Part shown: piece after piece, positions 1-31,066 of the stretch | Layout of the letters: each line of letters begins with the position of its first letter | Numbering within the stretch: position 1 is the first letter of the stretch | Assembly: GCA_963920705.1 (NCBI GenBank) | Contig: CAWUCO010000167.1 | Coordinates: 1 to 64,000 of the forward strand | Reading direction: 5' to 3' | Length of the DNA: 64,000 bases | Source: Odiellus spinosus | Taxonomy: Eukaryota; Arthropoda; Arachnida; Opiliones; Phalangiidae | Position numbers and translations under genes: made by a program | The notes under the pieces: model-generated | Seen by the model: only the letters and a program-made list of their open reading frames with translations | Databases searched by the model: none | Told to the model about the DNA's origin: nothing

Positions 1-645
1 AGCAAATATTGGTCTATCTAAAAAACAAGAGTTTTGGAAAATCCGTTGAAAATCATGGAAAATAAGGCCAATTCAATAAAACATCTAATATCAAAATGCG
101 AATTTTTAAAATCTGAAATTTGACTATTTTGATATTGTATGATTTCTTGAATAAGCCATATTTTTCTTGTTTTTCAACGGATTTTTGAAAACTCTTATTA
201 TTTAGACTGTCCATTAATTGCTCTTTCGAATGACTTTGGTTTTGTCTAAATTGCCAAAACGTGATAAATATAAAGTTGGTTAATATTAAGCAAAAACGCT
301 TAAAAAACAAAGATTATTGGATACAAATGGACACAAAACATTTGATTTTTAAGCGGTTTAGACAAAATCAACACCAGTCGAAAGAGCAAATATTGGTCTA
401 TCTAAAAAACAAGAGTTTTGGAAAAATCCGTTGAAAAACATGGAAAATGTGGCCAATTCAAAAAAACATCTAATATCAAAATGCGAATTTTTAAAATCTG
501 AAATTTGACTATTTTGATATTGTATGATTTCTTGAATTGGCCATATTTTTCTTGTTTTTCAACGGATTTTTGAAAACTCTTATTATTGAGACTCTCCATT
601 AATTGCTCTTTCGAATGACTTTGGTTTTGTCTAAATTGCCAAAAC

Positions 646-878
646 GTGACAAATATAAAATTGGTTAAAATTAACCAAAAGACCTTAAAAATCAAAGATT
701 ATTGGATTCAAATGGACACAAAACATTTGATTTTTAAGCGATTTCGACAAAATCAACACCAATCGAAAGAGCAAATATTGGTCTATCTAAAAAACAAGAG
801 TTTTGGAAACTCTTATTATTTAGACTGTCCATTAATTGCTCTTTCGAATGACTTTGGTTTTGTCTAAATTGCCAAAAC
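646..878. repeat. 233-bp core-deleted monomer 1 (type example)
   Basis: The unit runs normally to aacaagagttttgg, then jumps to aaactcttattattta of the right arm, losing 151 bp that hold the palindrome centre. Up to three A residues are shared at the junction. The product is a small perfect hairpin, aagagttt-tgg-aaactctt, at 796-814. All nine copies in the window have this identical junction, so the deletion happened once and spread by duplication. Confidence 0.93.
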
Positions 879-1358
879 GTGACAAATATAAAATTGGTTA
901 CGATTAAGCAAAAGAGCTTAAAAAACAAAGATTATTGGATTCAAATGGACACAAAACATTTGATTTTTAAGCGATTTAGACAAAATCAACACCAATCGAA
1001 AGAGCAAATATTGGTCTATCTAAAAAACAAGAGTTTTGGAAAATCCGTTGGAAAACATGGAAAATATGGCCAATTCAATAAAACATCTAATATCAAAATG
1101 CGAATTTTTAAAATCTGAAATTTGACTATTTTGATATTGTATGATTTCTTGAATTGGCCATATTTTTCTTGATTTTCAACGGATTTTTGAAAACTCTTAT
1201 TATTTAGACTGTCCATTAATTGCACTTTCGAATGACTTTGGTTTTGTCTAAATTGCCGAAACGTGACAAATATAAAATTGGTTAAAATTAACCAAAAGAC
1301 CTTAAAAATCAAAGATTATTGGATTCAAATGGACACAAAACATTTGATTTTTAAGCGA

Positions 1359-1636
1359 TTTAGACAAAATCAACACCAATCGAAAGAGCAAATATTGGTC
1401 TATCTAAAAAACAAGAGTTTTGGAAAATCCGTTGAAAAACATGGAAAATATGGCCAATTCAAAAAAACATCTAATATCAAAATGCGAATTTTTAAAATCT
1501 GAAATTTGACTATTTTGATATTGTATGATTTCTTGAATTGGCCATATTTTTCTTGTTTTTCAACGGATTTTTGAAAACTCTTATTATTGAGACTCTCCAT
1601 TAATTGCTCTTTCGAATGACTTTGGTTTTGTCTAAA
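1359..1636. repeat. Inverted repeat forming the body of each monomer (type example)
   Basis: The left arm (1359-1481) and the reverse complement of the right arm (1514-1636) align without gaps over 123 nt, with 22 mismatches by hand count. The 32-bp centre is tttaaaatctgaaattt-like. Shared blocks include tttagacaaaa, tcgaaagagcaa, aagagtttt, aaatccgttgaaaaaca, aaatatggccaattcaa and aatatcaaaat. The same arrangement recurs in every full-length unit, with arms diverging slightly between families. Such a structure could extrude as a cruciform, or fold into a long hairpin if transcribed. Its origin is probably an inverted duplication of a unit of about 140-190 bp, which is inference. Confidence 0.93.
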
Positions 1637-2056
1637 TTGCCAAAACGTGACAAATATAAAATTGGTTAAAATTAACCAAAAGACTTTAAAAATCAAAGAT
1701 TATTGGATTCAAATGGACACAAAACATTTGATTTTTAAGCTATTTCGACAAAATCAACACCAATCGAAAGAGCAAATATTGGTCTATCTAAAAAACAAGA
1801 GTTTTGGAAAATCCGTTGAAAAACATGGAAAATATGGCCAATTCAAAAAAAACATCTAATATCAAAATGCGAATTTTTAAAATCTGAAATTTGACTATTT
1901 TGATATTGTATGATTTCTTGAATTGGCCATATTTTTCTTGTTTTTCAATGGATTTTTGAAAACTCTTATTATTTAGACTGTCCATTAATTGCTCTTTCGA
2001 ATGACTTTGGTTTTGTCTAAATTGCCAAAACGTGACAAATATAAAATTGGTTAAAA

Positions 2057-2074
2057 TTAAGCAAAAACGCTTAA
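2057..2074. repeat. Second dyad in the inter-palindrome spacer (type example)
   Basis: ttaagc and gcttaa are perfect 6-bp inverted arms around aaaaac. The dyad lies near the midpoint between successive large palindromes. In monomers with aaccaaaagacctta (for example from 1263, 1647 and 2800) it is degraded. In the dimer subtype around 22,475, 23,240 and 25,155 it is reduced to aagcaaatcgct. Beyond it the flanks match only weakly, although both sides end in gtctaaat followed by a gc-containing step. This hints that the whole monomer was once an inverted dimer of two halves of about 192 bp. Confidence 0.7.
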
Positions 2075-2799
2075 AAAACAAAGATCATTGGATACAAATG
2101 GACACAAAACATTTGATTTTTAAGCGATTTAGACAAAATCAACACCAATGGAAAGAGCAAATATTGGTCTATCTAAAAAACGAGAGTTTTGCAAAATCCG
2201 TGGAAAAACATGGAAAATATGGCCAAATCAATAAAACATCTAATATCAAAATGCGAATTTTTAAAATCTGAAATTTGACTATTTTGATATTGTATGATTT
2301 CTTGAACTGGCCATATTTTTCTGGTTTTTCAATGGATTTTTGAAAACTCTTATTATTTAGACTGTCCATTAATTGCTCTTTCGAATGACTTTGGTTTTGT
2401 CTAAATTGCCAAAACGTGACAAATATAAAATTGGTTAAAATTAAGCAAAAACGCTTAAAAAACAAAGATCATTGGATACAAATGGACACAAAACATTTGA
2501 TTTTTAAGCGATTTAGACAAAATCAACACCAATGGAAAGAGCAAATATTGGTCTATCTAAAAAACGAGAGTTTTGCAAAATCCGTGGAAAAACATGGAAA
2601 ATATGGCCAATTCAATAAAACATCTAATATCTAGATGCGAATTTTTAAAAACTGAAATTTGACTATTTTGATATTGTATGATTTCTTGAATTGGCCATAT
2701 TTTTCTTGTTTTTCAACGGATTTTTGAAAACTCTTATTATTGAGACTCTCCATTAATTGCTCTTTCGAATGACTTTGGTTTTGTCTAAATTGCCAAAAC

Positions 2800-3032
2800 G
2801 TGACAAATATAAAATTGGTTAAAATTAACCAAAAGACCTTAAAAATCAAAGATTATTGGATTCAAATGGACACAAAACATTTGATTTTTAAGCGATTTCG
2901 ACAAAATCAACACCAATCGAAAGAGCAAATATTGGTCTATCTAAAAAACAAGAGTTTTGGAAACTCTTATTATTTAGACTGTCCATTAATTGCTCTTTCG
3001 AATGACTTTGGTTTTGTCTAAATTGCCAAAAC
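2800..3032. repeat. 233-bp core-deleted monomer 2
   Basis: Hairpin junction at 2950-2968, exactly 2,154 bp after copy 1. It heads the second hexamer HOR. Confidence 0.92.
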
Positions 3033-4953
3033 GTGACAAATATAAAATTGGTTACGATTAAGCAAAAGAGCTTAAAAAACAAAGATTATTGGATTCAAAT
3101 GGACACAAAACATTTGATTTTTAAGCGATTTAGACAAAATCAACAACAATCGAAAGAGCAAATATTGGTCTATCTAAAAAACAAGAGTTTTGGAAAATCC
3201 GTTGGAAAACATGGAAAATATGGCCAATTCAATAAAACATCTAATATCAAAATGCGAATTTTTAAAATCTGAAATTTGACTATTTTGATATTGTATGATT
3301 TCTTGAATTGGCCATATTTTTCTTGATTTTCAACGGATTTTTGAAAACTCTTATTATTTAGACTGTCCATTAATTGCACTTTCGAATGACTTTGGTTTTG
3401 TCTAAATTGCCGAAACGTGACAAATATAAAATTGGTTAAAATTAACCAAAAGACCTTAAAAATCAAAGATTATTGGATTCAAATGGACACAAAACATTTG
3501 ATTTTTAAGCGATTTAGACAAAATCAACACCAATCGAAAGAGCAAATATTGGCCTATCTAAAAAACAAGAGTTTTGGAAAATCCGTTGAAAAACATGGAA
3601 AATATGGCCAATTCAAAAAAACATCTAATATCAAAATGCGAATTTTTAAAATCTGAAATTTGACTATTTTGATATTGTATGATTTCTTGAATTGGCCATA
3701 TTTTTCTTGTTTTTCAACGGATTTTTGAAAACTCTTATTATTGAGACTCTCCATTAATTGCTCTTTCGAATGACTTTGGTTTTGTCTAAATTGCCAAAAC
3801 GTGACAAATATAAAATTGGTTAAAATTAACCAAAAGACTTTAAAAATCAAAGATTATTGGATTCAAATGGACACAAAACATTTGATTTTTAAGCTATTTC
3901 GACAAAATCAACACCAATCGAAAGAGCAAATATTGGTCTATCTAAAAAACAAGAGTTTTGGAAAATCCGTTGAAAAACATGGAAAATATGGCCAATTCAA
4001 AAAAAACATCTAATATCAAAATGCGAATTTTTAAAATCTGAAATTTGACTATTTTGATATTGTATGATTTCTTGAATTGGCCATATTTTTCTTGTTTTTC
4101 AATGGATTTTTGAAAACTCTTATTATTTAGACTGTCCATTAATTGCTCTTTCGAATGACTTTGGTTTTGTCTAAATTGCCAAAACGTGACAAATATAAAA
4201 TTGGTTAAAATTAAGCAAAAACGCTTAAAAAACAAAGATCATTGGATACAAATGGACACAAAACATTTGATTTTTAAGCGATTTAGACAAAATCAACACC
4301 AATGGAAAGAGCAAATATTGGTCTATCTAAAAAACGAGAGTTTTGCAAAATCCGTGGAAAAACATGGAAAATATGGCCAAATCAATAAAACATCTAATAT
4401 CAAAATGCGAATTTTTAAAATCTGAAATTTGACTATTTTGATATTGTATGATTTCTTGAATTGGCCATATTTTTCTGGTTTTTCAATGGATTTTTGAAAA
4501 CTCTTATTATTTAGACTGTCCATTAATTGCTCTTTCGAATGACTTTGGTTTTGTCTAAATTGCCAAAACGTGACAAATATAAAATTGGTTAAAATTAAGC
4601 AAAAACGCTTAAAAAACAAAGATCATTGGATACAAATGGACACAAAACATTTGATTTTTAAGCGATTTAGACAAAATCAACACCAATGGAAAGAGCAAAT
4701 ATTGGTCTATCTAAAAAACGAGAGTTTTGCAAAATCCGTGGAAAAACATGGAAAATATGGCCAATTCAATAAAACATCTAATATCTATATGCGAATTTTT
4801 AAAAACTGAAATTTGACTATTTTGATATTGTATGATTTCTTGAATTGGCCATATTTTTCTTGTTTTTCAACGGATTTTTGAAAACTCTTATTATTTAGAC
4901 TGTCCATTAATTGCTCTTTCGAATGACTTTGGTTTTGTCTAAATTGCCAAAAC
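2800..4953. repeat. 2,154-bp higher-order repeat, copy 2 (six units)
   Basis: This copy matches the preceding one in unit lengths and variant order. I noticed about six differences, including caacaacaat at 3146, ggcctatc near 3552, gaattgg for gaactgg near 4459, ctatatg for ctagatg near 4788, and tttagactgtcc for tgagactctcc near 4894. That is roughly 99.7% identity, which implies recent duplication. Confidence 0.93.
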
Positions 4954-5186
4954 GTGACAAATATAAAATTGGTTAAAATTAACCAAAAGACCTTAAAAAT
5001 CAAACATTATTGGATTCAAATGGACACAAAACATTTGATTTTTAAGCGATTTCGACAAAATCAACACCAATCGAAAGAGCAAATATTGGTCTATCTAAAA
5101 AACAAGAGTTTTGGAAACTCTTATTATTTAGACTGTCCATTAATTGCTCTTTCGAATGACTTTGGTTTTGTCTAAATTGCCAAAAC
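4954..5186. repeat. 233-bp core-deleted monomer 3
   Basis: Hairpin junction at 5104-5122. It carries the caaacattattgg variant shared with monomer 4 only. Confidence 0.92.
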
Positions 5187-6339
5187 GTGACAAATATAAA
5201 GTTGGTTAATATTAAGCAAAAACGCTTAAAAAACAAAGATTATTGGATACAAATGGACACAAAACATTTGATTTTTAAGCGATTTAGACAAAATCAACAC
5301 CAATCGAAAGAGCAAATATTGGTCTATCTAAAAAACAAGAGTTTTGGAAAATCCGTTGAAAAACATTGAAAATATGGCCAATTCAAAAAAAACATCTAAT
5401 ATCAAAATACGAATTTTTAAAATCTGAAATTTGACCATTTTGATATTGTATGATTTCTTGAATTGGCCATATTTTTCTTGTTTTTCAATGGATTTTTGAA
5501 AACTCTTATTATTTAGACTGTCCATTAATTGCTCTTTCCAATGACTTTGGTTTTGTCTAAATTGCCAAAACGTGACAAATATAAAATTGGTTAAAATTAA
5601 GCAAAAACGCTTAAAAAACAAAGATCATTGGATACAAATGGACACAAAACATTTGATTTTTAAGCGATTTAGACAAAATCAACACCAATGGAAAGAGCAA
5701 ATATTGGTCTATCTAAAAAACGAGAGTTTTGCAAAATCCGTGGAAAAACATGGAAAATATGGCCAAATCAATAAAACATCTAATATCAAAATGCGAATTT
5801 TTAAAATCTGAAATTTGACTATTTTGATATTGTATGATTTCTTGAATTGGCCATATTTTTCTGGTTTTTCAATGGATTTTTGAAAACTCTTATTATTTAG
5901 ACTGTCCATTAATTGCTCTTTCGAATGACTTTGGTTTTGTCTAAATTGCCAAAACGTGACAAATATAAAATTGGTTAAAATTAAGCAAAAACGCTTAAAA
6001 AACAAAGATCATTGGATACAAATGGACACAAAACATTTGATTTTTAAGCGATTTAGACAAAATCAACACCAATGGAAAGAGCAAATATTGGTCTATCTAA
6101 AAAACGAGAGTTTTGCAAAATCCGTGGAAAAACATGGAAAATATGGCCAATTCAATAAAACATCTAATATCTATATGCGAATTTTTAAAAACTGAAATTT
6201 GACTATTTTGATATTGTATGATTTCTTGAATTGGCCATATTTTTCTTGTTTTTCAACGGATTTTTGAAAACTCTTATTATTTAGACTGTCCATTAATTGC
6301 TCTTTCGAATGACTTTGGTTTTGTCTAAATTGCCAAAAC
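4954..6339. repeat. Higher-order repeat, 1,386-bp four-unit version
   Basis: Units are 233, 385, 384 and 384 bp. Relative to the 2,154-bp form, two monomers (768 bp) between the short unit and the cattgaaaatatgg unit are missing. The rest keeps the HOR order. Its caaacattattgg variant at about 5001 is shared with the next HOR at about 6387. Confidence 0.88.
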
Positions 6340-6572
6340 GTGACAAATATAAAATTGGTTAAAATTAACCAAAAGACCTTAAAAATCAAACATTATTGGA
6401 TTCAAATGGACACAAAACATTTGATTTTTAAGCGATTTCGACAAAATCAACACCAATCGAAAGAGCAAATATTGGTCTATCTAAAAAACAAGAGTTTTGG
6501 AAACTCTTATTATTTAGACTGTCCATTAATTGCTCTTTCGAATGACTTTGGTTTTGTCTAAATTGCCAAAAC
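6340..6572. repeat. 233-bp core-deleted monomer 4
   Basis: Hairpin junction at 6490-6508. The following full unit has aacaatgattattgg near 6619, private to this copy. Confidence 0.92.
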
Positions 6573-7341
6573 GTGACAAATATAAAGTTGGTTAATATTA
6601 AGCAAAAACGCTTAAAAAACAATGATTATTGGATACAAATGGACACAAAACATTTGATTTTTAAGCGATTTAGACAAAATCAACACCAATCGAAAGAGCA
6701 AATATTGGTCTATCTAAAAAACAAGAGTTTTGGAAAATCCGTTGAAAAACATTGAAAATATGGCCAATTCAAAAAAAACATCTAATATCAAAATGCGAAT
6801 TTTTAAAATCTGAAATATGACTATTTTGATATTGTATGATTTCTTGAATTGGCCATATTTTTCTTGTTTTTCAATGGATTTTTGAAAACTCTTATTATTT
6901 AGACTGTCCATTAATTGCTCTTTCCAATGACTTTGGTTTTGTCTAAATTGCCAAAACGTGACAAATATAAAATTGGTTAAAATTAAGCAAAAACGCTTAA
7001 AAAACAAAGATCATTGGATACAAATGGACACAAAACATTTGATTTTTAAGCGATTTAGACAAAATCAACACCAATGGAAAGAGCAAATATTGGTCTATCT
7101 AAAAAACGAGAGTTTTGCAAAATCCGTGGAAAAACATGGAAAATATGGCCAATTCAATAAAACATCTAATATCAATATGCGAATTTTTAAAAACTGAAAT
7201 TTGACTATTTTGATATTGTATGATTTCTTGAATTGGCCATATTTTTCTTGTTTTTCAACGGATTTTTGAAAACTCTTATTATTTAGACTGTCCATTAATT
7301 GCTCTTTCGAATGACTTTGGTTTTGTCTAAATTGCCAAAAC
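6340..7341. repeat. Higher-order repeat, 1,002-bp three-unit version
   Basis: Units are 233, 385 and 384 bp. One further monomer has been lost relative to the 1,386-bp copy. The last unit carries atcaatatgcg near 7171 in place of atctatatgcg, suggesting the loss joined two related monomers by unequal exchange. Confidence 0.87.
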
Positions 7342-7574
7342 GTGACAAATATAAAATTGGTTAAAATTAAACAAAAGACCTTAAAAATCAAAGATTATTG
7401 GATTCAAATGGACACAAAACATTTGATTTTTAAGCGATTTCGACAAAATCAACACCAATCGAAAGAGCAAATATTGGTCTATCTAAAAAACAAGAGTTTT
7501 GGAAACTCTTATTATTTAGACTGTCCATTAATTGCTCTTTCGAATGACTTTGGTTTTGTCTAAATTGCCAAAAC
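7342..7574. repeat. 233-bp core-deleted monomer 5
   Basis: Hairpin junction at 7492-7510. The spacer reads aaacaaaagacc rather than aaccaaaagacc. Confidence 0.92.
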
Positions 7575-8728
7575 GTGACAAATATAAAGTTGGTTAATAT
7601 TAAGCAAAAACGCTTAAAAAACAAAGATTATTGGATACAAATGGACACAAAACATTTGATTTTTAAGCGATTTAGACAAAATCAACACCAATCGAAAGAG
7701 CAAATATTGGTCTATCTAAAAAACAAGAGTTTTGGAAAATCCGTTGAAAAACATTGAAAATATGGCCAATTCAAAAAAAAACATCTAATATCAAAATGCG
7801 AATTTTTAAAATCTGTAATTTGACTATTTTGATATTGTATGATTTCTTGAATTGGCCATTTTTTTCTTGTTTTTCAATGGATTTTTGAAAACTCTTATTA
7901 TTTAGACTGTCCATTAATTGCTCTTTCCAATGACTTTGGTTTTGTCTAAATTGCCAAAACGTGACAAATATAAAATTGGTTAAAATTAAGCAAAAACGCT
8001 TAAAAAACAAAGATCATTGGATACAAATGGACACAAAACATTTGATTTTTAAGCGATTTTGACAAAATCAACACCAATGGAAAGAGCAAATATTGGTCTA
8101 TCTAAAAAACGAGAGTTTTGCAAAATCCGTGGAAAAACATGGAAAATATGGCCAAATCAATAAAACATCTAATATCAAAATGCGAATTTTTAAAATCTGA
8201 AATTTGACTATTTTGATATTGTATGATTTCTTGAATTGGCCATATTTTTCTGGTTTTTCAATGGATTTTTGAAAACTCTTATTATTTAGACTGTCCATTA
8301 ATTGCTCTTTCGAATGACTTTGGTTTTGTCTAAATTGCCAAAACGTGACAAATATAAAATTGGTTAAAATTAAGCAAAAACGCTTAAAAAACAAAGATCA
8401 TTGGATACAAATGGACACAAAACATTTGATTTTTAAGCGATTTAGACAAAATCAACACCAATGGAAAGAGCAAATATTGGTCTATCTAAAAAACGAGAGT
8501 TTTGCAAAATCCGTGGAAAAACATGGAAAATATGGCCAATTCAATAAAACATCTAATATCTATATGCGAATTTTTAAAAACTGAAATTTGACTATTTTGA
8601 TATTGTATGATTTCTTGAATTGGCCATATTTTTCTTGTTTTTCAACGGATTTTTGAAAACTCTTATTATTTAGACTGTCCATTAATTGCTCTTTCGAATG
8701 ACTTTGGTTTTGTCTAAATTGCCAAAAC
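7342..8728. repeat. Higher-order repeat, 1,387-bp four-unit version
   Basis: Units are 233, 386, 384 and 384 bp. The 386-bp unit owes its extra bases to a 9-A run near 7773-7781. This copy contains the left end (about 7,753) of the 5.08-kb tandem duplication. Confidence 0.87.
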
Positions 8729-8961
8729 GTGACAAATATAAAATTGGTTAAAATTAACCAAAAGACCTTAAAAATCAAAGATTATTGGATTCAAATGGAC
8801 ACAAAACATTTGATTTTTAAGCGATTTCGACAAAATCAACACCAATCGAAAGAGCAAATATTGGTCTATCTAAAAAACAAGAGTTTTGGAAACTCTTATT
8901 ATTTAGACTGTCCATTAATTGCTCTTTCGAATGACTTTGGTTTTGTCTAAATTGCCAAAAC
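8729..8961. repeat. 233-bp core-deleted monomer 6
   Basis: Hairpin junction at 8879-8897. Its duplicate lies 5,079 bp downstream at 13,808. Confidence 0.92.
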
Positions 8962-10502
8962 GTGACAAATATAAAGTTGGTTAATATTAAGCAAAAACGC
9001 TTAAAAAACAAAGATTATTGGATACAAATGGACACAAAACATTTGATTTTTAAGCGATTTAGACAAAATCAACACCAATCGAAAGAGCAAATATTGGTCT
9101 ATCTAAAAAACAAGAGTTTTGGAAAATCCGTTGAAAAACATGGAAAATATGGCCAATTCAAAAAAAACATCTAATATCAAAATGCGAATTTTTAAAATCT
9201 GAAATTTGACTATTTTGATATTGTATGATTTCTTGAATTGGCCATATTTTTCTTGTTTTTCAATGGATTTTTGAAAACTCTTATTATTTAGACTGTCCAT
9301 TAATTGCTCTTTCCAATGACTTTGGTTTTGTCTAAATTGCCAAAACGTGACAAATATAAAATTGGTTAAAATTAAGCAAAAACGCTTAAAAAACAAAGAT
9401 CATTGGATACAAATGGACACAAAACATTTGATTTTTAAGCGATTTAGACAAAATCAACACCAATGGAAAGAGCAAATATTGGTCTATCTAAAAAACGAGA
9501 GTTTTGCAAAAATCCGTGGAAAAACATGGAAAATATTGCCAATTCAATAAAACATCTAATATCAATATGCGAATTTTTAAAAACTGAAATTTGACTATTT
9601 TGATATTGTATGATTTCTTGAATTGGCCATATTTTTCTTGTTTTTCAACGGATTTTTGAAAACTCTTATTATTTAGACTGTCCATTAATTGCTCTTTCGA
9701 ATAACTTTGGTTTTGTCTAAATTGCCAAAACATGACAAATATAAAGTTGGTTAATATTAAGCAAAAACGCTTAAAAAACAAAGATTATTGGATACAAATG
9801 GACACAAAACATTTGATTTTTAAGCGATTTAGACAAAATCAACACCAATCGAAAGAGCAAATATTGGTCTATCTAAAAAACAAGAGTTTTAGAAAATCCG
9901 TTGAAAAACATGGAAAATATGGCCAATTCAAAAAAAAAACATCTAATATCAAAATGCGAATTTTTAAAATCTGAAATTTGACTATTTTGATATTGTATGA
10001 TTTCTTGAATTGGCCATATTTTTCTTGTTTTTCAATGGATTTTTGAAAACTCTTATTATTTAGACTGTCCATTAATTGCTCTTTCGAATGACTTTGGTTT
10101 TGTCTAAATTGCCAAAACGTGACAAATATAAAATTGGTTAAAATTAAGCAAAAACGCTTAAAAAACAAAGATCATTGGATACAAATGGACACAAAACATT
10201 TGATTTTTAAGCGATTTAGACAAAATCAACACCAATGGAAAGAGCAAATATTGGTCTATCTAAAAAACGAGAGTTTTGGAAAATCCGTGGAAAAACATGG
10301 AAAATATGGCCAATTCAATAAAACATCTAATATCAATATGCGAATTTTTAAAAACTGAAATTTGACTATTTTGATATTGTATGATTTCTTGAATTGGCCA
10401 TATTTTTCTTGTTTTTCAACGGATTTTTGAAAACTCTTATTATTTAGACTGTCCATTAATTGCTCTTTCGAATGACTTTGGTTTTGTCTAAATTGCCAAA
10501 AC
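8729..10502. repeat. Higher-order repeat, 1,774-bp five-unit version
   Basis: Units are 233, 385, 385, 387 and 384 bp. The third unit has cttttcgaataactttgg near 9700 and an isolated aacatgaca at about 9730. The fourth has a 10-A run near 9930. Two of these monomers are absent from the duplicate at 14,041-14,809. Confidence 0.87.
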
Positions 10503-10735
10503 GTGACAAATATAAAATTGGTTAAAATTAACCAAAATACCTTAAAAATCAAAGATTATTGGATTCAAATGGACACAAAACATTTGATTTTTAAGCGATT
10601 TCGACAAAATCAACACGAATCGAAAGAGCAAATATTGGTCTATCTAAAAAACAAGAGTTTTGGAAACTCTTATTATTTAGACTGTCCATTAATTGCTCTT
10701 TCGAATGACTTTGGTTTTGTCTAAATTGCCAAAAC
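10503..10735. repeat. 233-bp core-deleted monomer 7
   Basis: Hairpin junction at 10653-10671. Private changes are aaaatacctta near 10535 and caacacgaatcg near 10613, both absent from its duplicate at 14,810. Confidence 0.92.
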
Positions 10736-11519
10736 GTGACAAATATAAAAATGGTTAAAATTAAACAAAAACGCTTAAAAAACAAAGATTATTGGATTCA
10801 AATGGACACAAAACATTTGATTTTTAAGCGATTTAGACAAAATCAACACCAATCGAAAGAGCAAATATATGTCTATCTAAAAAACAAGAGTTTTGGAAAA
10901 TCCGTTGAAAAACATGGATAATATGGCCAATTCAAAAAAATGTCTAATATCAAAATGCGAATTTTTAAAATCTGAAATTTGACTATTTTGATATTGTATG
11001 ATTTCTTGAATTGGCCATATTTTTCTTGTTTTTCAACGGATTTTTGAAAACTCTTATTATTTAGACTGTCCATTAATTGCTCTTTCGAATAACTTTGGTT
11101 TTGTCTAAATTGCCAAAACGTGACAAATATAAAGTTGGTTAATATTAAGCAAAAACGCTTAAAAAACAAAGATTATTGGATACAAATGGACACAAAACAT
11201 TTTATTTTTAAGCGATTTAGACAAAATCAACACCAATCGAAAGAGCAAATATTGGTCTATCTAAAAAACAAGAGTTTTGGAAAATCCGTTGAAAAACATG
11301 GAAAATATGGCCAATACAAAAAAAACATCTAATATCAAAATGCGAATTTTTAAAATCTGAAATTTGACTATTTTGATATTGTAAGATTTCTTGAATTGGC
11401 CATATTTTTCTTGTTTTTCAATGGATTTTTGAAAACTCTTATTATTTAGACTGTCCATTAATTGCTCTTTCGAATGACTTTGGTTTTGTCTAAATTGCCA
11501 AAACGTGACAAATATAAAA

Positions 11520-12790
11520 TTGGTTGAAATGAAGCTAAAACGCTTAAAAATCCAAGATATATTGGATTCAAATGGACACAAAACATTTGATTTTTTAACG
11601 ATTTAGACAAAATTAACACCACTCGAAAGAGCAAATATTGGTCTATCTAAAAAACAAGAGTTTTGGTAAATCCGTTGAAAAACATGGAAAATATGGCCAA
11701 TTCAAAAAACATCTAATATCAAAAAGCGAATTTTTAAAATCTGAAATTTGACTATTTTGATATTGTATGATTTCTTGAATTGGCCAAATTTTTCTTGTTT
11801 TTCAACGGATTTTTGAAAACTCTTATTATTTAGACTGTCCATTAATTTATCTTTCGAATGATTTTGGTTTTGTCTAAATTGCCAAAACGTGACAAATATA
11901 AAATTGGTTAAAATTAAGCAAAAACGCTTAAAAATCCAAGATTATTGTTTCAAAGGACGCAAAACATTTGATTTTTAAGCGATTTAGACAAAATTAACAC
12001 CACTCGAAGGAGCAAATATGGGTCTATCTAATAAACAAGAGTTTTGGTAAATCCGTTGAAAAACATGGAAAATATGGTCAATTCAAAAAACATCTAATAT
12101 CAAAAAGCGAATTTTTAAAATCTGAAATTTGACTATTTTGATATTGTATGATTTCTTGAATTGGCCATATTTTTCTTGTTTTTCAACGGATTTTTGAAAA
12201 CTCTTATTATTTAGACTGTCCATTAATTGCTCTTAAGAATGACTTTGGTTTTGTCTTAATTGCCAAAACGTGACAAATATAAAATTGGTTGAAATGAAGC
12301 TAAAACGCTTAAAAATCCAAGATTATTGGATTCAAATGGACACAAAACATTTGATTTTTAAGCGATTTAGACAAAATTAACACCACTCGAAAGACCAAAT
12401 ATTGGTATATCTAAAAAACAAGCTTTTTGGAGAATCCGTTGAAAAACATGGAAAATATGGCCAATTCAAAAAACATCTAATATCAAAAAGCGAATTTTTA
12501 AAATCTGAAATTTGACTATTTTGATAATGTATGATTTCTTGAATTGGCCATATTTTTCTTGTTTTTCAACGGGTTTTTGAAAACTCTTATTATTTAGACT
12601 GTCCATTAATTGCTCTTTAGAATGACTTTGGTTTTGTCTTAATTGCCAAAACCTGACAAATATAAAATTGGTTGAAATGAAGCTAAAACGCTTAAAAATC
12701 CAAGATTATTGTATTCAAATGGACACAAAACATTTGATTTTTAAGCGATTTAGACAAAATTAACACCACTCGAAAGACCAAATATTGGTA
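11520..12790. repeat. Transition monomers from family A to family C
   Basis: From about 11,525 the spacer becomes gttgaaatgaagctaaaacg, the left arm aaaattaacaccactcg, and the centre aaaaagcgaattttt. These are the family C markers. One monomer has gattattgtttcaaaggacg at about 11,940, where part of the usual attggattcaaatggacac is lost. The taacac change puts a stop in the plus-strand frame of the left arm, so only minus-strand open frames persist in this family. Confidence 0.82.
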
Positions 12791-13807
12791 TATCTAAAAA
12801 ACAAGAGTTTTGGAAAATCCGTTGAAAAACATTGAAAATATGGCCAATTCAAAAAAAAAACATCTAATATCAAAATGCGAATTTTTAAAATCTGTAATTT
12901 GACTATTTTGATATTGTATGATTTCTTGAATTGGCCATATTTTTCTTGTTTTTCAATGGATTTTTGAAAACTCTTATTATTTAGACTGTCCATTAATTGC
13001 TCTTTCCAATGACTTTGGTTTTGTCTAAATTGCCAAAACGTGACAAATATAAAATTGGTTAAAATTAAGCAAAAACGCTTAAAAAACAAAGATCATTGGA
13101 TACAAATGGACACAAAACATTTGATTTTTAAGCGATTTAGACAAAATCAACACCAATGGAAAGAGCAAATATTGGTCTATCTAAAAAACGAGAGTTTTGC
13201 AAAATCCGTGGAAAAACATGGAAAATATGGCCAAATCAATAAAACATCTAATATCAAAATGCGAATTTTTAAAATCTGAAATTTGACTATTTTGATATTG
13301 TATGATTTCTTGAATTGGCCATATTTTTCTGGTTTTTCAATGGATTTTTGAAAACTCTTATTATTTAGACTGTCCATTAATTGCTCTTTCGAATGACTTT
13401 GGTTTTGTCTAAATTGCCAAAACGTGACAAATATAAAATTGGTTAAAATTAAGCAAAAACGCTTAAAAAACAAAGATCATTGGATACAAATGGACACAAA
13501 ACATTTGATTTTTAAGCGATTTAGACAAAATCAACACCAATGGAAAGAGCAAATATTGGTCTATCTAAAAAACGAGAGTTTTGCAAAATCCGTGGAAAAA
13601 CATGGAAAATATGGCCAATTCAATAAAACATCTAATATCTATATACGAATTTTTAAAAACTGAAATTTGACTATTTTGATATTGTATGATTTCTTGAATT
13701 GGCCATATTTTTCTTGTTTTTCAACGGATTTTTGAAAACTCTTATTATTTAGACTGTCCATTAATTGCTCTTTCGAATGACTTTGGTTTTGTCTAAATTG
13801 CCAAAAC

Positions 13808-14040
13808 GTGACAAATATAAAATTGGTTAAAATTAACCAAAAGACCTTAAAAATCAAAGATTATTGGATTCAAATGGACACAAAACATTTGATTTTTAAG
13901 CGATTTCGACAAAATCAACACCAATCGAAAGAGCAAATATTGGTCTATCTAAAAAACAAGAGTTTTGGAAACTCTTATTATTTAGACTGTCCATTAATTG
14001 CTCTTTCGAATGACTTTGGTTTTGTCTAAATTGCCAAAAC
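13808..14040. repeat. 233-bp core-deleted monomer 8
   Basis: Hairpin junction at 13958-13976, inside the second copy of the 5.08-kb duplication. Confidence 0.92.
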
Positions 14041-14809
14041 GTGACAAATATAAAGTTGGTTAATATTAAGCAAAAACGCTTAAAAAACAAAGATTATTGG
14101 ATACAAATGGACACAAAACATTTGATTTTTAAGCGATTTAGACAAAATCAACACCAATCGAAAGAGCAAATATTGGTCTATCTAAAAAACAAGAGTTTTG
14201 GAAAATCCGTTGAAAAACATGGAAAATATGGCCAATTCAAAAAAAACATCTAATATCAAAATGCGAATTTTTAAAATCTGAAATTTGACTATTTTGATAT
14301 TGTATGATTTCTTGAATTGGCCATATTTTTCTTGTTTTTCAATGGATTTTTGAAAACTCTTATTATTTAGACTGTCCATTAATTGCTCTTTCGAATGACT
14401 TTGGTTTTGTCTAAATTGCCAAAACGTGACAAATATAAAATTGGTTAAAATTAAGCAAAAACGCTTAAAAAACAAAGATCATTGGATACAAATGGACACA
14501 AAACATTTGATTTTTAAGCGATTTAGACAAAATCAACACCAATGGAAAGAGCAAATATTGGTCTATCTAAAAAACGAGAGTTTTGGAAAATCCGTGGAAA
14601 AACATGGAAAATATGGCCAATTCAATAAAACATCTAATATCAATATGCGAATTTTTAAAAACTGAAATTTGACTATTTTGATATTGTATGATTTCTTGAA
14701 TTGGCCATATTTTTCTTGTTTTTCAACGGATTTTTGAAAACTCTTATTATTTAGACTGTCCATTAATTGCTCTTTCGAATGACTTTGGTTTTGTCTAAAT
14801 TGCCAAAAC

Positions 14810-15042
14810 GTGACAAATATAAAATTGGTTAAAATTAACCAAAAGACCTTAAAAATCAAAGATTATTGGATTCAAATGGACACAAAACATTTGATTTTTA
14901 AGCGATTTCGACAAAATCAACACCAATCGAAAGAGCAAATATTGGTCTATCTAAAAAACAAGAGTTTTGGAAACTCTTATTATTTAGACTGTCCATTAAT
15001 TGCTCTTTCGAATGACTTTGGTTTTGTCTAAATTGCCAAAAC
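14810..15042. repeat. 233-bp core-deleted monomer 9, last in the window
   Basis: Hairpin junction at 14960-14978. I find no further core-deleted monomer in the remaining 49 kb. Confidence 0.92.
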
Positions 15043-16820
15043 GTGACAAATATAAAAATGGTTAAAATTAAACAAAAACGCTTAAAAAACAAAGATTATT
15101 GGATTCAAATGGACACAAAACATTTGATTTTTAAGCGATTTAGACAAAATCAACACCAATCGAAAGAGCATATATATGTCTATCTAAAAAACAAGAGTTT
15201 TGGAAAATCCGTTGAAAAACATGGATAATATGGCCAATTCAAAAAAATGTCTAATATCAAAATGCGAATTTTTAAAATCTGAAATTTGACTATTTTGATA
15301 TTGTATGATTTCTTGAATTGGCCATATTTTTCTTGTTTTTCAACGGATTTTTGAAAACTCTTATTATTTAGACTGTCCATTAATTGCTCTTTCGAATAAC
15401 TTTGGTTTTGTCTAAATTGCCAAAACGTGACAAATATAAAGTTGGTTAATATTAAGCAAAAACGCTTAAAAAACAAAGATTATTGGATACAAATGGACAC
15501 AAAACATTTTAGTTTTAAGCGATTTAGACAAAATCAACACCAATCGAAAGAGCAAATATTGGTCTATCTAAAAAACAAGAGTTTTGGAAAATCCGTTGAA
15601 AAACATGGAAAATATGGCCAATTCAAAAAAAACATCTAATATCAAAATGCGAATTTTTAAAATCTGAAATTTGACTATTTTGATATTGTATGATTTCTTG
15701 AATTGGCCATATTTTTCTTGTTTTTCAATGGATTTTTGAAAACTTATTATTTAGACTGTCCATTAATTGCTCTTTCGAATGACTTTGGTTTTGTCTAAAT
15801 TGCCAAAACGTGACAAATATAAAATTGGTTGAAATGAAGCTAAAACGCTTAAAAATCCAAGATATATTGGATTCAAATGGACACATAACATTTGATTTTT
15901 TAACGATTTAGACAAAATTAACACCACTCGAAAGAGCAAATATTGGTCTATCTAAAAAACAAGAAATTTGGTAAATCCGTTGAAAAACATGGAAAATATG
16001 GCCAATTCAAAAAACATCTAATATCAAAAAGCGAATTTTTAAAATCTGAAATTTGACTATTTTGATATTGTATGATTTCTTGAATTGGCCAAATTTTTCT
16101 TGTTTTTCAACGGATTTTTGAAAACTCTTATTATTTAGACTGTCCATTAATTTATCTTTCGAATGATTTTGGTTTTGTCTAAATTGCCAAAACGTGACAA
16201 ATATAAAATTGGTTAAAATTAAGCAAAAACGCTTAAAAATCCAAGATTATTGTTTCAAAGGACGCAAAACATTTGATTTTTAAGCGATTTAGACAAAATT
16301 AACACCAATCGAAAGAGCAAATATTGGTCTATCTAAAAAAACAAGAGATTTGAAAAATCCGTTGAAAAACATGGAAAATATGGCCAATTCAAAAAAACAT
16401 CTAATATCAAAATGCGAATTTTTAAAATCTGAAATTTGACTATTTTGATATTGTATGATTTCTTGAATTGGCCATATTTTTCTTGTTTTTCAACGGATTT
16501 TTGAAAACTCTTATTATTTAGACTGTCCATTAATTGCTCTTTCGAATGACTTTGGTTTTGTCTAAATTGCCAAATCGTGACAATTATAAAATTGGTTAAA
16601 ATTAAGCAAAACCGCTTAAAAAACAAAGATTATTGGATTCAAATGGACACAAAACATTTGATTTTTAAGCGATTTAGACAAAATTAACACCACTCGAAAG
16701 ACCAAATATTGTTATATCTAAAAAACAAGAGTTTTGGAAAATCCGTTGAAAAACATGGCAAATATGGCCAATTCAAAAAACATCTAATATCAAAAAGCGA
16801 ATTTTTAAAATCTGAAATTT

Positions 16821-16945
16821 GACTATTTTTATATTGGTCTATCTAAAAAACAAGAGTTTTGGAAAATCCGTTGAAAAACATGGAAAATATGGTCAATTCA
16901 AAAAACATCTAATATCAAAAAGCGAATTTTTAAAATCTGAAATTT
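16821..16945. repeat. 125-bp deleted unit (type example, first in window)
   Basis: After gaaatttgactatttt in the right arm the sequence jumps to tatattggtctatc of the next left arm, losing about 258 bp that include the rest of the right arm and the spacer. Both normal parents contain atattg at the breakpoint (ttttgatattgtatg and caaatattggtc), so exchange at this 6-bp match is likely. A shared g-to-t change gives the marker gactatttttatattggtct. The identical marker in all 19 copies indicates one founder event. Confidence 0.92.
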
Positions 16946-17645
16946 GACTATTTTGATATTGTATGATTTCTTGAATTGGCCATATTTTTCTTGTTTTTCA
17001 ACGGATTTTTGAAAACTCTTATTATTTAGACTGTCCATTAATTGCTCTTAAGAATGACTTTGGTTTTGTCTTAATTGCCAAAACGTGACAAATATAAAAT
17101 TGGTTGAAATGAAGCTAAAACGCTTAAAAATCCAAGATTATTGGATTCAAATGGACACAAAACATTTGATTTTTAAGCGATTTAGACAAAATTAACACCA
17201 CTCGAAAGACCAAATATTGGTATATCTAAAAAACAAGCTTTTTGGAGAATCCGTTGAAAAACATGGAAAATATGGCCAATTCAAAAAACATCTAATATCA
17301 AAAAGCGAATTTTTAAAATCTGAAATTTGACTATTTTGATAATGTATGATTTCTTGAATTGGCCATATTTTTCTTGTTTTTCAACGGGTTTTTGAAAACT
17401 CTTATTATTTAGACTGTCCATTAATTGCTCTTTAGAATGACTTTGGTTTTGTCTTAATTGCCAAAACCTGACAAATATAAAATTGGTTGAAATGAAGCTA
17501 AAACGCTTAAAAATCCAAGATTATTGTATTCAAATGGACACAAAACATTTGATTTTTAAGCGATTTAGACAAAATTAACACCACTCGAAAGACCAAATAT
17601 TGGTATATCTAAAAAACAAGAGTTTTGGAAAATCCGTTGAAAAAC

Positions 17646-20600
17646 ATGGAAAATATGGCCAATTCAAAAAACATCTAATATCAAAAAGCGAATTTTTAAA
17701 ATCTGAAATTTGACTATTTTGATATTGTATGATCTCTTGAATTGGCCATATTTTTCTTGTTTTTCAACGGATTTTTGAAAACTCTTATTATTTAGACTGT
17801 CCATTAATTGCTTTTTCGAATGACTTTGGTTTTGCCTAAATTGCCAAAACGTGACAAATATAAAATTGGTTAAAATTAAGCAAAAACGCTTAAAAATCCA
17901 AGATATATTGGATTCAAATGGACACAAAACATTTGATTTTTAAGCGATTTAGACAAAATTAACACCACTCGAAAGAGCAAATATTGGTCTATCTAAAAAA
18001 CAAGAGTTTTGGAAAATCCGTTGAAAAACATGGAAAATATGGCCAATTCAAAAAACATCTAATATCAAAAAGCGAATTTTTAAAATCTGAAATTTGACTA
18101 TTTTGATATTGTATGATTTCTTGAATTTGCCATATTTTTCTTGTTTTTCAACGGATTTTTGAAAGCTCTTATTATTTAGACTGTCCATTAATTTATCTTT
18201 CGAATGATTTTGGTTTTGTCTAAATTGCCAAAACGTGACAAATATAAAATTGGTTAAAATTAAGCAAAAATGCTTAAAAATCCAAGATTATTGTTTCAAA
18301 GGACGCAAAACATTTGATTTTTAAGCGATTTAGACAAAATTAACACCACTCGAAAGAGCAAATATGGGTCTATCTAATAAACAAGAGTTTTGGAAAATCC
18401 GTAGAAAAACATGGAAAATATGGTCAATTCAAAAAACATCTAATATCAAAAAGCGAATTTTTAAAATCTGAAATTTGACTATTTTGATATTGTATGATTT
18501 CTTGAATTGGCCATATTTTTCTTTTTTTTCAACGGATTTTTGAAAACTCTTATTATTTAGACTGTCCATTAATTGCTCTTTAGAATGACTTTGGTTTTGT
18601 CTTAATTGCCAAAACGTGACAAATATAAAATTGGTTGAAATGAAGCTAAAACGCTTAAAAATCCAAGATTATTGGATTCAAATGGACACAAAACATTTGA
18701 TTTTTAAGCGATTTAGACAAAATTAATACCACTCGAAAGAACATATATTGGTATATCTAAAAAACAAGCTTTTTGGAAAATCCGTTGAAAAACATGGAAA
18801 ATATGGCGAATTCAAAAAACATCTAATATCAAAAAGCGAATTTTTAAAATCTGAAATTTGACTATTTTGATATTGTATGATTTCTTGAATTGGCCATATT
18901 TTTCTTGTTTTTCAACGGGTTTTTGAAAACTCTTATTATTTAGACTGTCCATTAATTGCTCTTTAGAATGACTTTGGTTTTGTCTTAATTGCCAAAACGT
19001 GACAAATATAAAATTGGTTGAAATGAAGCTAAAACGCTTAAAAATCCAAGATTATTGGATTCAAATGGACACAAAACATTTGATTTTTAAGCGATTTAGA
19101 CAAAATTAACACCACTCGAAAGACCAAATATTGGTATATCTAAAAAACAAGCTTTTTGGAGAATCCGTTGAAAAACATGGAAAATATGGCCAATTCAAAA
19201 AACATCTAATATCAAAAAGCGAATTTTTAAAATCTGAAATTTGACTATTTTGATAATGTATGATTTCTTGAATTGGCCATATTTTTCTTGTTTTTCAACG
19301 GGTTTTTGAAAACTCTTATTATTTAGACTGTCCATTAATTGCTCTTTAGAATGACTTTGGTTTTGTCTTAATTGCCAAAACCTGACAAATATAAAATTGG
19401 TTGAAATGAAGCTAAAACGCTTAAAAATCCAAGATTATTGTATTCAAATGGACACAAAACATTTGATTTTTAAGCGATTTAGACAAAATTAACACCACTC
19501 GAAAGACCAAATATTGGTATATCTAAAAAACAAGAGTTTTGGAAAATCCGTTGAAAAACATGGAAAATATGGCCAATTCAAAAAACATCTAATATCAAAA
19601 AGCGAATTTTTAAAATCTGAAATTTGACTATTTTGATATTGTATGATCTCTTGAATTGGCCATATTTTTCTTGTTTTTCAACGGATTTTTGAAAACTCTT
19701 ATTATTTAGACTGTCCATTAATTGCTTTTTCGAATGACTTTGGTTTTGCCTAAATTGCCAAAACGTGACAAATATAAAATTGGTTAAAATTAAGCAAAAA
19801 CGCTTAAAAATCCAAGATTATTGTATTCAAATGGACACAAAACATTTGATTTTTAAGCGATTTAGACAAAATTAACACCACTCGAAAGACCAAATATTGG
19901 TATATCTAAAAAACAAGAGTTTTGGAGAATCCGTTGAAAAACATGGAAAATATGGCCAATTCAAAAAACATCTAATATCAAAAAGCGAATTTTTAAAATC
20001 TGAAATTTGACTATTTTGATAATGTATGATTTCTTGAATTGGCCATATTTTTCTTGTTTTTCAACGGGTTTTTGAAAACTCTTATTATTTAGACTGTCCA
20101 TTAATTGCTCTTTAGAATGACTTTGGTTTTGTCTTAATTGCCAAAACCTGACAAATATAAAATTGGTTGAAATGAAGCTAAAACGCTTAAAAATCCAAGA
20201 TTATTGTATTCAAATGGACACAAAACATTTGATTTTTAAGCGATTTAGACAAAATTAACACCACTCGAAAGACCAAATATTGGTATATCTAAAAAACAAG
20301 AGTTTTGGAAAATCCGTTGAAAAACATGGAAAATATGGCCAATTCAAAAAACATCTAATATCAAAAAGCGAATTTTTAAAATCTGAAATTTGACTATTTT
20401 GATATTAGATGATCTCTTGAATTGGCCATATTTTTCTTGTTTTTCAACGGATTTTTGAAAACTCTTATTATTTAGACTGTCCATTAATTGCTTTTTCGAA
20501 TGACTTTGGTTTTGCCTAAATTGCCAAAACGTGACAAATATAAAATTGGTTAAAATTAAGCAAAAACGCTTAAAAATCCAAGATATATTGGATTCAAATG

Positions 20601-23600
20601 GACACAAAACATTTGATTTTTAAGCGATTTAGACAAAATTAACACCACTCGAAAGAGCAAATATTGGTCTATCTAAAAAACAAGAGTTTTGGAAAATGCG
20701 TTGAAAAACATGGAAAATATGGCCAATTCAAAAAACATCTAATATCAAAAAGCGAATTTTTAAAATCTGAAATTTGACTATTTTGATATTGTATGATTTC
20801 TTGAATTTGCCATATTTTTCTTGTTTTTCAACGGATTTTTGAAAGCTCTTATTATTTAGACTGTCCATTAATTTATCTTTCGAATGATTTTGGTTTTGTC
20901 TAAATTGCCAAAACGTGACAAATATAAAATTGGTTAAAATTAAGCAAAAATGCTTAAAAATCCAAGATTATTGTTTCAAAGGACGCAAAACATTTGATTT
21001 TTAAGCGATTTAGACAAAATTAACACCACTCGAAAGAGCAAATATGGGTCTATCTAATAAACAAGAGTTTTGGAAAATCCGTAGAAAAACATGGAAAATA
21101 TGGTCAATTCAAAAAACATCTAATATCAAAAAGCGAATTTTTAAAATCTGAAATTTGACTATTTTGATATTGTATGATTTCTTGAATTGGCCATATTTTT
21201 CTTTTTTTTCAACGGATTTTTGAAAACTCTTATTATTTAGACTGTCCATTAATTGCTCTTTAGAATGACTTTGGTTTTGTCTTAATTGCCAAAACGTGAC
21301 AAATATAAAATTGGTTGAAATGAAGCTAAAACGCTTAAAAATCCAAGATTATTGGATTCAAATGGACACAAAACATTTGATTTTTAAGCGATTTAGACAA
21401 AATTAATACCACTCGAAAGACCATATATTGGTATATCTAAAAAACAAGCTTTTTGGAAAATCCGTTGAAAAACATGGAAAATATGGCGAATTCAAAAAAC
21501 ATCTAATATCAAAAAGCGAATTTTTAAAATCTGAAATTTGACTATTTTGATATTGTATGATTTCTTGAATTGGCCATATTTTTCTTGTTTTTCAACGGGT
21601 TTTTGAAAACTCTTATTATTTAGACTGTCCATTAATTGCTCTTTAGAATGACTTTGGTTTTGTCTTAATTGCCAAAACGTGACAAATATAAAATTGGTTG
21701 AAATGAAGCTAAAACGCTTAAAAATCCAAGATTATTGGATTCAAATGGACACAAAACATTTGATTTTTAAGCGATTTAGACAAAATTAACACCACTCGAA
21801 AGACCAAATATTGGTATATCTAAAAAACAAGAGTTTTGGAAAATCCGTTGAAAAACATGGAAAATATGGCCAATTCAAAAAACATCTAATATCAAAAAGC
21901 GAATTTTTAAAATCTGAAATTTGACTATTTTGATATTGTATGATCTCTTGAATTGGCCATATTTTTCTTGTTTTTCAACGGATTTTTGAAAACTCTTATT
22001 ATTTAGACTGTCCATTAATTGCTTTTTCGAATGACTTTGGTTTTGTCTAAATTGCCAAAACCTGACAAATATAAAATTTGTTAAAATTAAGCAAAAACGC
22101 TTAAAAATCCAAGATATATTGGATTCAAATGGACACAAAACATTTGATTTTTAAGCGATTTAGACAAAATTAACACCACTCGAAAGAGCAAATATTGGTC
22201 TATCTAAAAAACAAGAATTTTGGTAAATCCGTTGAAAAACATGGAAAATATGGCCAATTCAAAAAACATCTAATATCAAAAAGCGAATTTTTAAAATCTG
22301 AAATTTGACTATTTTGATATTGTATGATTTCTTGAATTTGCCATATTTTTCTTGTTTTTCAACGGATTTTTGAAAGCTCTTATTATTGAGACTGTCCATT
22401 AATTGCTTTTTCGAGTGACTTTGGTTTTGTCTAAATTGCCAAAACGTGACAAATATAAAATTGGTTAAAATTAAGCAAATCGCTAAAAATCCAAGATTAT
22501 TGGATTCAAATGGACACAAAACATTTGATTTTTAAGCGATTTAGACAAACTTAACACAACTCGAAAGACCAAATATTGGTATATCTAAAAAAAAAGAGTT
22601 TTGGAAAATCCGTTGAAAAACATGGAAAATATGGCCAATTCAAAAAACATCTAATATCAAAAAGCGAATTTTTAAAATCTGAAATTTGACTATTTTGATA
22701 TTGTATGATCTCTTGAATTGGCCATATTTTTCTTGTTTTTCAACGGATTTTTGAAAACTCTTATTATTTAGACTGTCCATTAATTGCTTTTTCGAATGAC
22801 TTTGGTTTTGTCTAAATTGCCAAAACCTGACAAATATAAAATTTGTTAAAATTAAGCAAAAACGCTTAAAAATCCAAGATATATTGGATTCAAATGGACA
22901 CAAAACATTTGATTTTTAAGCGATTTAGACAAAATTAACACCACTCGAAAGAGCAAATATTGGTCTATCTAAAAAACAAGAATTTTGGTAAATCCGTTGA
23001 AAAACATGGAAAATATGGCCAATTCAAAAAACATCTAATATCAAAAAGCGAATTTTTAAAATCTGAAATTTGACTATTTTGATATTGTATGATTTCTTGA
23101 ATTTGCCATATTTTTCTTGTTTTTCAACGGATTTTTGAAAGCTCTTATTATTGAGACTGTCCATTAATTGCTTTTTCGAGTAACTTTGGTTTTGTCTAAA
23201 TTGCCAAAACGTGACAAATATAAAATTGGTTAAAATTAAGCAAATCGCTAAAAATCCAAGATTATTGGATTCAAATGGACACAAAACATTTGATTTTTAA
23301 GCGATTTAGACAAACTTAACACAACTCGAAAGACCAAATATTGGTATATCTAAAAAAAAAGAGTTTTGGAAAATCCGTTGAAAAACATGGAAAATATGGC
23401 CAATTCAAAAAACATCTAATATCAAAAAGCGAATTTTTAAAATCTGAAATTTGACTATTTTGATATTGTATGATTTCTTGAATTGGCCATATTTTTCTTG
23501 TTTTTCAACGGATTTTTGAAAACTCTTATTATTTAGACTGTCCATTAATTGCTTTTTCGAATGACTTTGGTTTTGTCTAAATTGCCAAAACGTGACAAAT

Positions 23601-27884: not shown

Positions 27885-27915
27885 AATATCAAAAAGCGAA
27901 AATTGGTTAAAATTA
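27885..27915. repeat. Unique deletion junction removing a right arm
   Basis: The left arm ends at aaaaagcgaa and joins aattggttaaaattaagc of the spacer, deleting about 170 bp, essentially the whole right arm. It is the only such junction I found. The next left-arm landmark comes 214 bp later instead of 383. Confidence 0.88.
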
Positions 27916-30900: not shown

Positions 30901-31066
30901 CATTTGATTTTTAAGCGATTTAGACAAAATTAACACCACTCGAAAGACCAAATATTGGTATATCTAAAAAACAAGAGTTTTGGAAAATCCGTTGAAAAAC
31001 ATGGAAAATATGGCCAATTCAAAAAACATCTAATATCAAAAAGCGAATTTTTAAAATCTGAAATTT

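What the first reader, a model, noticed from the sequence alone, without database searches (positions are those of the whole stretch)
1359..1636. The satellite monomer is a ~280-bp imperfect palindrome
Two 123-nt arms align ungapped with 22 mismatches around a 32-bp centre. Almost three quarters of each unit is self-complementary, so every strand could fold into a long hairpin and duplex DNA could extrude cruciforms about every 384 bp. Dyad symmetry has been reported as enriched at centromeric satellites, particularly those without CENP-B boxes. A tandem satellite made of such long inverted arms seems unusual.
Basis: partly seen in the sequence, partly recalled or inferred. Interest (0 to 1): 0.75.

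Follow-up and report, generated by a model that had tools for sequence, protein, structure and literature searches.

The report
Palindromic arthropod satellite, also inside transposons
The window is satellite DNA whose 384-bp repeat is mostly one imperfect palindrome; the palindrome is real and old but shows no clear sign of being kept for folding, and the same repeat also sits inside a small family of foldback-type jumping genes.

Summary
At 1359-1636 two 123-nt arms pair ungapped with 22 mismatches around a 32-bp centre; 1000 shuffles never exceeded 45% arm identity. The window holds 136 near-full copies, mean arm identity 79%. The single strand folds at -81 kcal/mol against -24 for shuffles.

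Across 445 units, changes at mismatched pairs do not favour the partner arm, and compensated double changes (5) are no more than a shuffle gives (mean 9.3). Paired arm sites do vary less than mismatched ones, a weak hint the other way. The palindrome looks like an old inverted duplication copied by amplification. A 151-bp deletion removes the hairpin tip almost symmetrically, as hairpin slippage would.

Outside the window the satellite amounts to an estimated 12 Mb. Its units also lie, as inverted blocks, in a low-copy foldback-type transposon with 9-bp target duplications; one 10.7-kb copy with the same ends has ORFs and no satellite. Long palindromic satellite monomers are rare but known (passages of PMC13081366).

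The parts
1359..1481 (+). left arm of the palindrome (123 nt) in the unit named by the finding
1482..1513 (+). 32-bp centre (loop)
1514..1636 (+). right arm (123 nt), complementary to the left arm at 101 of 123 positions
1637..1742 (+). 106-bp spacer between palindromes; folds only weakly (z -2.1)
1..64000 (+). head-to-tail satellite array, unit 383/384 bp with 233-bp and ~508-bp variants; no part of the transposon other than satellite found here
796..820 (+). junction of a 233-bp unit: 151 bp (palindrome tip) missing, 3-nt microhomology, breakpoints close to dyad-symmetric positions; same junction at 2950, 5104, 6490, 7492, 8879, 10653, 13958, 14960
16706..16961 (+). two tandem copies of a 125-bp piece (left arm plus centre), the first ~508-bp unit in the window

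Best explanation
It is an abundant satellite of what looks like an arthropod genome. Its 384-bp monomer arose (inferred) from an inverted duplication that left two arms around a 32-bp centre; that unit was then amplified head to tail by unequal exchange or similar (inferred), so that copies inherited the same, already about 18%-diverged palindrome (shown: most arm mismatches are shared between the sampled subfamilies). The palindrome is carried mainly passively: sampled arms mutate without excess matched change (shown). Its foldability matters mainly as a mutational hazard: when single-stranded it can fold, and replication slippage at the hairpin base explains the tip deletion (inferred). A foldback-type DNA transposon family carries copies of the same satellite in inverted blocks (shown) and may scatter them (inferred).
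For: Palindrome in each of seven sampled groups: consensus arm complementarity 0.80-0.84 (C18 over 107 of 123 pairs). 12 of 20 mismatched pairs are near-fixed (both sides over 95%) over 445 units; changes at mismatched pairs: 236 toward the partner against 227 expected, 537 other against 279 expected; as distinct variants 17 (19.7 expected) and 43 (30.2). Compensated doubles 5, shuffle mean 9.3, at least 5 in 971 of 1000 shuffles. Tip deletion with 3-nt microhomology, breakpoints 3-9 nt off dyad symmetry; 99 exact junctions in the genome: 88 on C149, 9 in the window, 2 on C261. Transposon copies.
Against: Arm sites that pair vary less (0.024) than mismatched arm sites (0.043), in outer (0.037 against 0.062) and inner arms (0.018 against 0.029) alike. 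Between group consensuses, 13 of 28 one-sided changes fall on mismatched pairs, more than their share of pairs, and 6 of these 13 restore pairing. Apart from two recurrent non-pairing combinations (41 of 48 doubles), 5 of the other 7 double changes do pair. The inner 192 bp is the quieter half of the unit (pi 0.035 against 0.065 outer arms, 0.059 spacer), but not significantly by block permutation (p 0.097). Units share descent, so counts are not independent. The origin by inverted duplication is inferred; no single-arm ancestor was searched out.
Confidence: 0.6

Rival explanations
1. The dyad is selected: cruciforms or hairpins in the array help load centromeric chromatin.
For: Strong predicted folding; long arrays on several contigs; no CENP-B box core; paired arm sites less variable than mismatched ones; the idea is stated for other satellites (passages of PMC13081366).
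Against: No excess of compensatory or arm-directed changes; arms only about 80% complementary; no data on centromere position or CENP-A.
Confidence: 0.15
2. The palindrome is an old foldback MITE that inserted in a spacer sequence and was amplified with it.
For: 123-bp arms with a short centre are MITE-like; a TA lies just inside each end of the arms (sequence at 1359-1636).
Against: Arm homology fades gradually beyond the ends. A strict pattern for left arms whose preceding base is not the array's gave 24 exact hits on 6 contigs, mostly in clusters; it revealed no clear solo copy, but the hits were not read one by one except part of the C18 cluster, which is array.
Confidence: 0.15
3. The satellite arrays were born inside the foldback transposon (the Tetris model) and grew out of it.
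For: Eight of nine transposon loci read contain satellite units in inverted blocks; Tetris of Drosophila virilis is a published precedent (abstract and passages of PMC4079207).
Against: The putative autonomous copy lacks satellite; no transposon ends or 149-bp repeats in the window or in seven fetched array loci checked; transposon units carry 14 majority alleles that are rare (<5%) in the 445 array units, so neither is nested in the other as sampled.
Confidence: 0.2

Closest known systems
Trichogramma brassicae 385-bp satellite (as described in PMC13081366)
   Same: monomer of nearly the same length with inverted repeats inside it
   Different: arms there about 80 bp, here 123 bp; sequence not compared here
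Tribolium brevicornis 1061-bp and T. madens TmSat2 satellites (as described in PMC13081366)
   Same: most of the monomer is one long dyad; T. madens arrays also switch orientation
   Different: longer monomers; in T. madens inversion sites recur in conserved form, whereas the one array inversion junction read here (C168:70,699) occurs once as an exact 20-mer in this genome
Tetris foldback transposon and its TIR-220 satellite, Drosophila virilis (PMC4079207)
   Same: foldback transposon with tandem repeats in long terminal inverted repeats, target duplications of 8-10 bp there and 9 bp here, repeats shared with satellite arrays
   Different: here the abundant satellite lies in the interior, while the 149-bp terminal tandem repeats were not seen in the arrays checked; a candidate autonomous copy exists here

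Membership tests
Satellite DNA with a long dyad inside the monomer | head-to-tail tandem array of homogenised units | tested here: met
   (mean identity within array groups 0.954-0.978)
Satellite DNA with a long dyad inside the monomer | long inverted arms within each monomer, far above chance | tested here: met
   the 233-bp variant keeps a shortened dyad
Centromeric satellite | occupied by CENP-A / at the functional centromere | not testable with these tools
   no chromatin or cytology data
Centromeric satellite | CENP-B box (not required of all) | tested here: not met
   0 matches of the core, also with 1 mismatch, both strands of the window (motif recalled)
Structure maintained by selection for pairing | excess of compensatory or arm-directed changes | tested here: not met
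   but paired sites vary less than mismatched sites
Foldback-type Mutator-like transposon (the dispersed copies) | long terminal inverted repeats containing tandem repeats | tested here: met
   about 531 bp plus 149-bp repeats at both ends
Foldback-type Mutator-like transposon (the dispersed copies) | target site duplication of about 9 bp | tested here: met
   7 elements checked: 5 perfect 9 bp, 1 with 8 of 9, 1 none
Foldback-type Mutator-like transposon (the dispersed copies) | Mutator-type transposase | tested here: inconclusive
   571-aa ORF in the 10.7-kb copy has no Pfam hit up to E 1 and no PDB hit better than E 1.5; a 392-aa ORF resembles ubiquitin hydrolases (UCH, E 7.1e-5, 23 bits against a cut-off of 23.9)
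MITE | solo copies with target duplications | tested here: inconclusive

The most novel reading that the evidence does not exclude
A palindromic-monomer satellite is packaged, as inverted blocks, in a low-copy foldback transposon with an autonomous partner, and transposition of these packages seeds new satellite arrays on other chromosomes; the host thus has a mobile vector for an abundant satellite.
Probability: 0.25. Interest if true: 0.6.

Novelty: new member of a known kind. Interest (0 to 1): 0.42.

Why it matters
It adds an example, in what looks like a non-insect arthropod, of the rare satellites whose monomer is mostly one dyad, with enough copies to test whether such dyads are kept by selection; here there is no clear sign that they are. 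The link to a foldback transposon with a putative autonomous copy makes the question of how satellites move between chromosomes testable in one genome.

Tried and rejected
Considered and rejected: (1) that the whole array is a strict alternation of inverted half-units of 192 bp: the axes half a unit away score only about 0.54-0.58 over 96 bp, and part of that comes from the arms; the spacer does not align well with its own reverse complement. (2) Arm-to-arm correction (quasi-palindrome correction): no excess seen. (3) That the orientation switch in the array is the transposon's central switch: the junctions differ, and the array junction occurs once as an exact 20-mer. (4) Conserved inversion sites as in Tribolium madens: not supported by that one junction. 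(5) Naming the species: COX1 reads with the invertebrate code; a tRNA scan of that 4.3-kb piece and the sequence after cox1 show no trnL before a frame that I take from recall to be cox2, which suggests a non-pancrustacean arthropod; not pursued.

Led nowhere: a search for 18S rRNA in the genome failed twice by machine error; the bacterial tRNA scan of the mitochondrial piece found nothing; first COX1 translations were in the wrong place, strand or frame; one script stopped on a division by zero after collecting 239 units and was replaced by a better unit finder (then); the myriapod satellite literature search gave no paper; the FB-NOF search gave only the Tetris paper; the Trichogramma search gave two papers, seen as a listing, of which one was read in part.

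Full report
WHAT WAS CHECKED. The window is bases 1-64000 of contig C168 (1.33 Mb) of a 443-Mb genome in 286 contigs. Shuffling the 278 bases 1000 times never gave more than 44.7% arm identity, against 82% here. The consensus of 104 units of 376-390 bp (48 before 26 kb, 56 after; the other intervals between anchors were left out) is 383-384 nt; aligned to its own reverse complement in all rotations it scores 161-172, and 100 dinucleotide shuffles of the overall consensus give mean 23, maximum 49. 136 near-full copies lie on the plus strand of the window, gapped arm identity 75-82%.

FOLDING. As single-stranded DNA the 278 bases fold at -81.1 kcal/mol, against a shuffle mean of -24.1 (z -17.1); as RNA at -129.1 against -43.8 (z -21.0). 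The spacer folds only weakly (z -2.1). These are single-strand predictions; extrusion from duplex in vivo was not tested.

IS PAIRING KEPT? I extracted 445 spacer-delimited units of 370-395 bp (135 from the window, 310 from 18 fetched array loci); units of other lengths, such as 233 bp and 508 bp, are not in this set. Arm complementarity is 0.801 on average (0.754-0.836). Twenty consensus pairs are mismatched; in 12 both sides are over 95% fixed. At mismatched pairs, 236 variant copies (17 distinct variants) go toward the partner arm and 537 (43 distinct) go elsewhere; the substitution spectrum of the other sites predicts 227 (19.7) and 279 (30.2). At matched pairs there are 48 double changes (24.5 expected by independence), of which 5 keep pairing; 28 and 13 of the 48 are two recurrent combinations that do not pair, and 5 of the other 7 do pair. 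Shuffling partners among units gives 9.3 compensated doubles on average and at least 5 in 971 of 1000 shuffles. So there is no excess of arm-to-arm correction or compensation. Against this reading: paired arm sites vary less (0.024) than mismatched ones (0.043), in outer arms (0.037 against 0.062) and inner arms (0.018 against 0.029) alike. The inner 192 bp is the quieter half of the unit (pi 0.035 against 0.065 in outer arms and 0.059 in spacer), but the block permutation gives p 0.097.

SUBFAMILIES. Comparing the consensuses of seven groups (two in the window, C107, C149, C18, C5, transposon), the 29 arm differences from the majority are 15 breaking, 6 restoring, 7 mismatch to mismatch and 1 on both sides that does not pair. 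The same change shared by several groups is counted for each. 24 of the 29 lie in the outer 43 of 123 pairs. 13 of the 28 one-sided changes hit mismatched pairs, more than their share of pairs; hot sites or weak constraint on paired sites could both give this.

REARRANGEMENTS. Units of 233 bp lack 151 bp around the palindrome centre. The breakpoint has 3 nt of microhomology (AAA) and lies 3-9 nt off exact dyad symmetry; the nine copies in the window have five distinct sequences. The exact junction occurs 99 times in the genome: 88 on C149, 9 in the window, 2 on C261, so it was probably one event that was then amplified. Slippage at the base of a hairpin is the simplest account, by inference. 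Units near 508 bp carry an extra 125 bp of left arm plus centre. One orientation switch was read at about C168:70.7 kb; its exact 20-nt junction is unique in the genome. On C107 the orientation is minus at 0, 0.4 and 0.85-0.88 Mb and plus at 1.5 Mb, so at least one more switch lies between, if the assembly is right.

EXTENT. The sampled stretches of C168 are satellite except the last 3 kb, which is a different, 39-bp repeat. C107 (2.6 Mb) is satellite at each place sampled up to 1.5 Mb and not at its end; C149 (4.2 Mb) is satellite in the parts read of its first 90 kb, with spacer hits to 305 kb, and not at 1, 2, 3 Mb or its end. A 27-nt spacer word occurs 16,808 times exactly in the genome (7538 + 9270) and 92 times in the window, which scales to roughly 12 Mb, about 2.6% of the genome; this assumes that other arrays match the word as often as the window. 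Arrays also lie inside C5 and C18, and pattern hits occur on C6, C132, C136, C206, C207 and C261; those six were not read.

A TRANSPOSON CARRIES IT. Small clusters with similar spacing on C1-C5 proved to be a mobile element. Its terminal word occurs 34 times exactly, 28 of these as 14 facing pairs 3.6-10.7 kb apart. I read nine element loci, one of them (L043) cut at its 3' end, and one lone end (L050). From the ends inward come about 531 bp, then 149-bp tandem repeats, then, in eight of the nine, satellite units in opposite orientations meeting in the middle. Seven were checked for target duplications: five have perfect 9-bp ones, one has 8 of 9, one none. The ninth, 10.7 kb on C7, has the same ends (98%) and a 9-bp duplication, no satellite, and ORFs of 571, 392 and 222 aa. 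The 392-aa ORF matches UCH weakly (E 7.1e-5, 23 bits against a cut-off of 23.9); the 222-aa ORF has only weak hits below cut-off; the 571-aa ORF, which I would guess to be the transposase, has no Pfam match and no PDB match better than E 1.5. The 18 satellite units taken from eight transposon loci (8 distinct sequences) carry 14 majority alleles that are rare (<5%) in the 445 array units and share diagnostic states with both window subfamilies, so neither derives from the other as sampled. No other transposon part was found in the window, in seven fetched array loci, or in three non-satellite loci.

COMPARISON. PMC13081366 (abstract and passages seen) calls long dyads within monomers uncommon and names the examples given above; it says that array-level macro-dyad symmetries had been documented only in Tribolium. 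PMC4079207 (abstract and passages seen) describes a foldback transposon whose repeats built a satellite. The present case combines both themes. It is filed as a new member of a known kind.

VERDICT. Observation confirmed; foldability supported; a functional cruciform or centromere role is neither shown nor excluded, and the compensation test that could have favoured it did not.

Noticed in passing
L040 1096-5957, L041 1122-5975, L042, L043, L044, L045, L048, L049: Foldback-type transposon family with 9-bp target duplications, 149-bp terminal tandem repeats and inverted satellite blocks in its interior.
   Followed up: partly
L046 101 to L047 5342 (C7:12543801-12554542): 10.7-kb copy with the same ends, no satellite, ORFs of 571, 392 (UCH-like) and 222 aa: candidate autonomous partner.
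   Followed up: partly
L040 2845-2959 and the like place in L041, L044, L045 and L049: A 115-bp insert between satellite units in the transposon that itself contains a hairpin-like inverted repeat; absent from L048.
   Followed up: no
L031 1-3000 (C168:1327001-1330000): The far end of the contig is a different satellite, 39-bp unit.
   Followed up: no
C17 1.1-4.4 Mb: Nine partial COX1 matches in a 13.7-Mb contig, probably nuclear copies of mitochondrial DNA.
   Followed up: no
L016 about 6690-6720 (C168:70.7 kb): Array orientation switches at a junction that occurs once as an exact 20-mer in the genome.
   Followed up: yes
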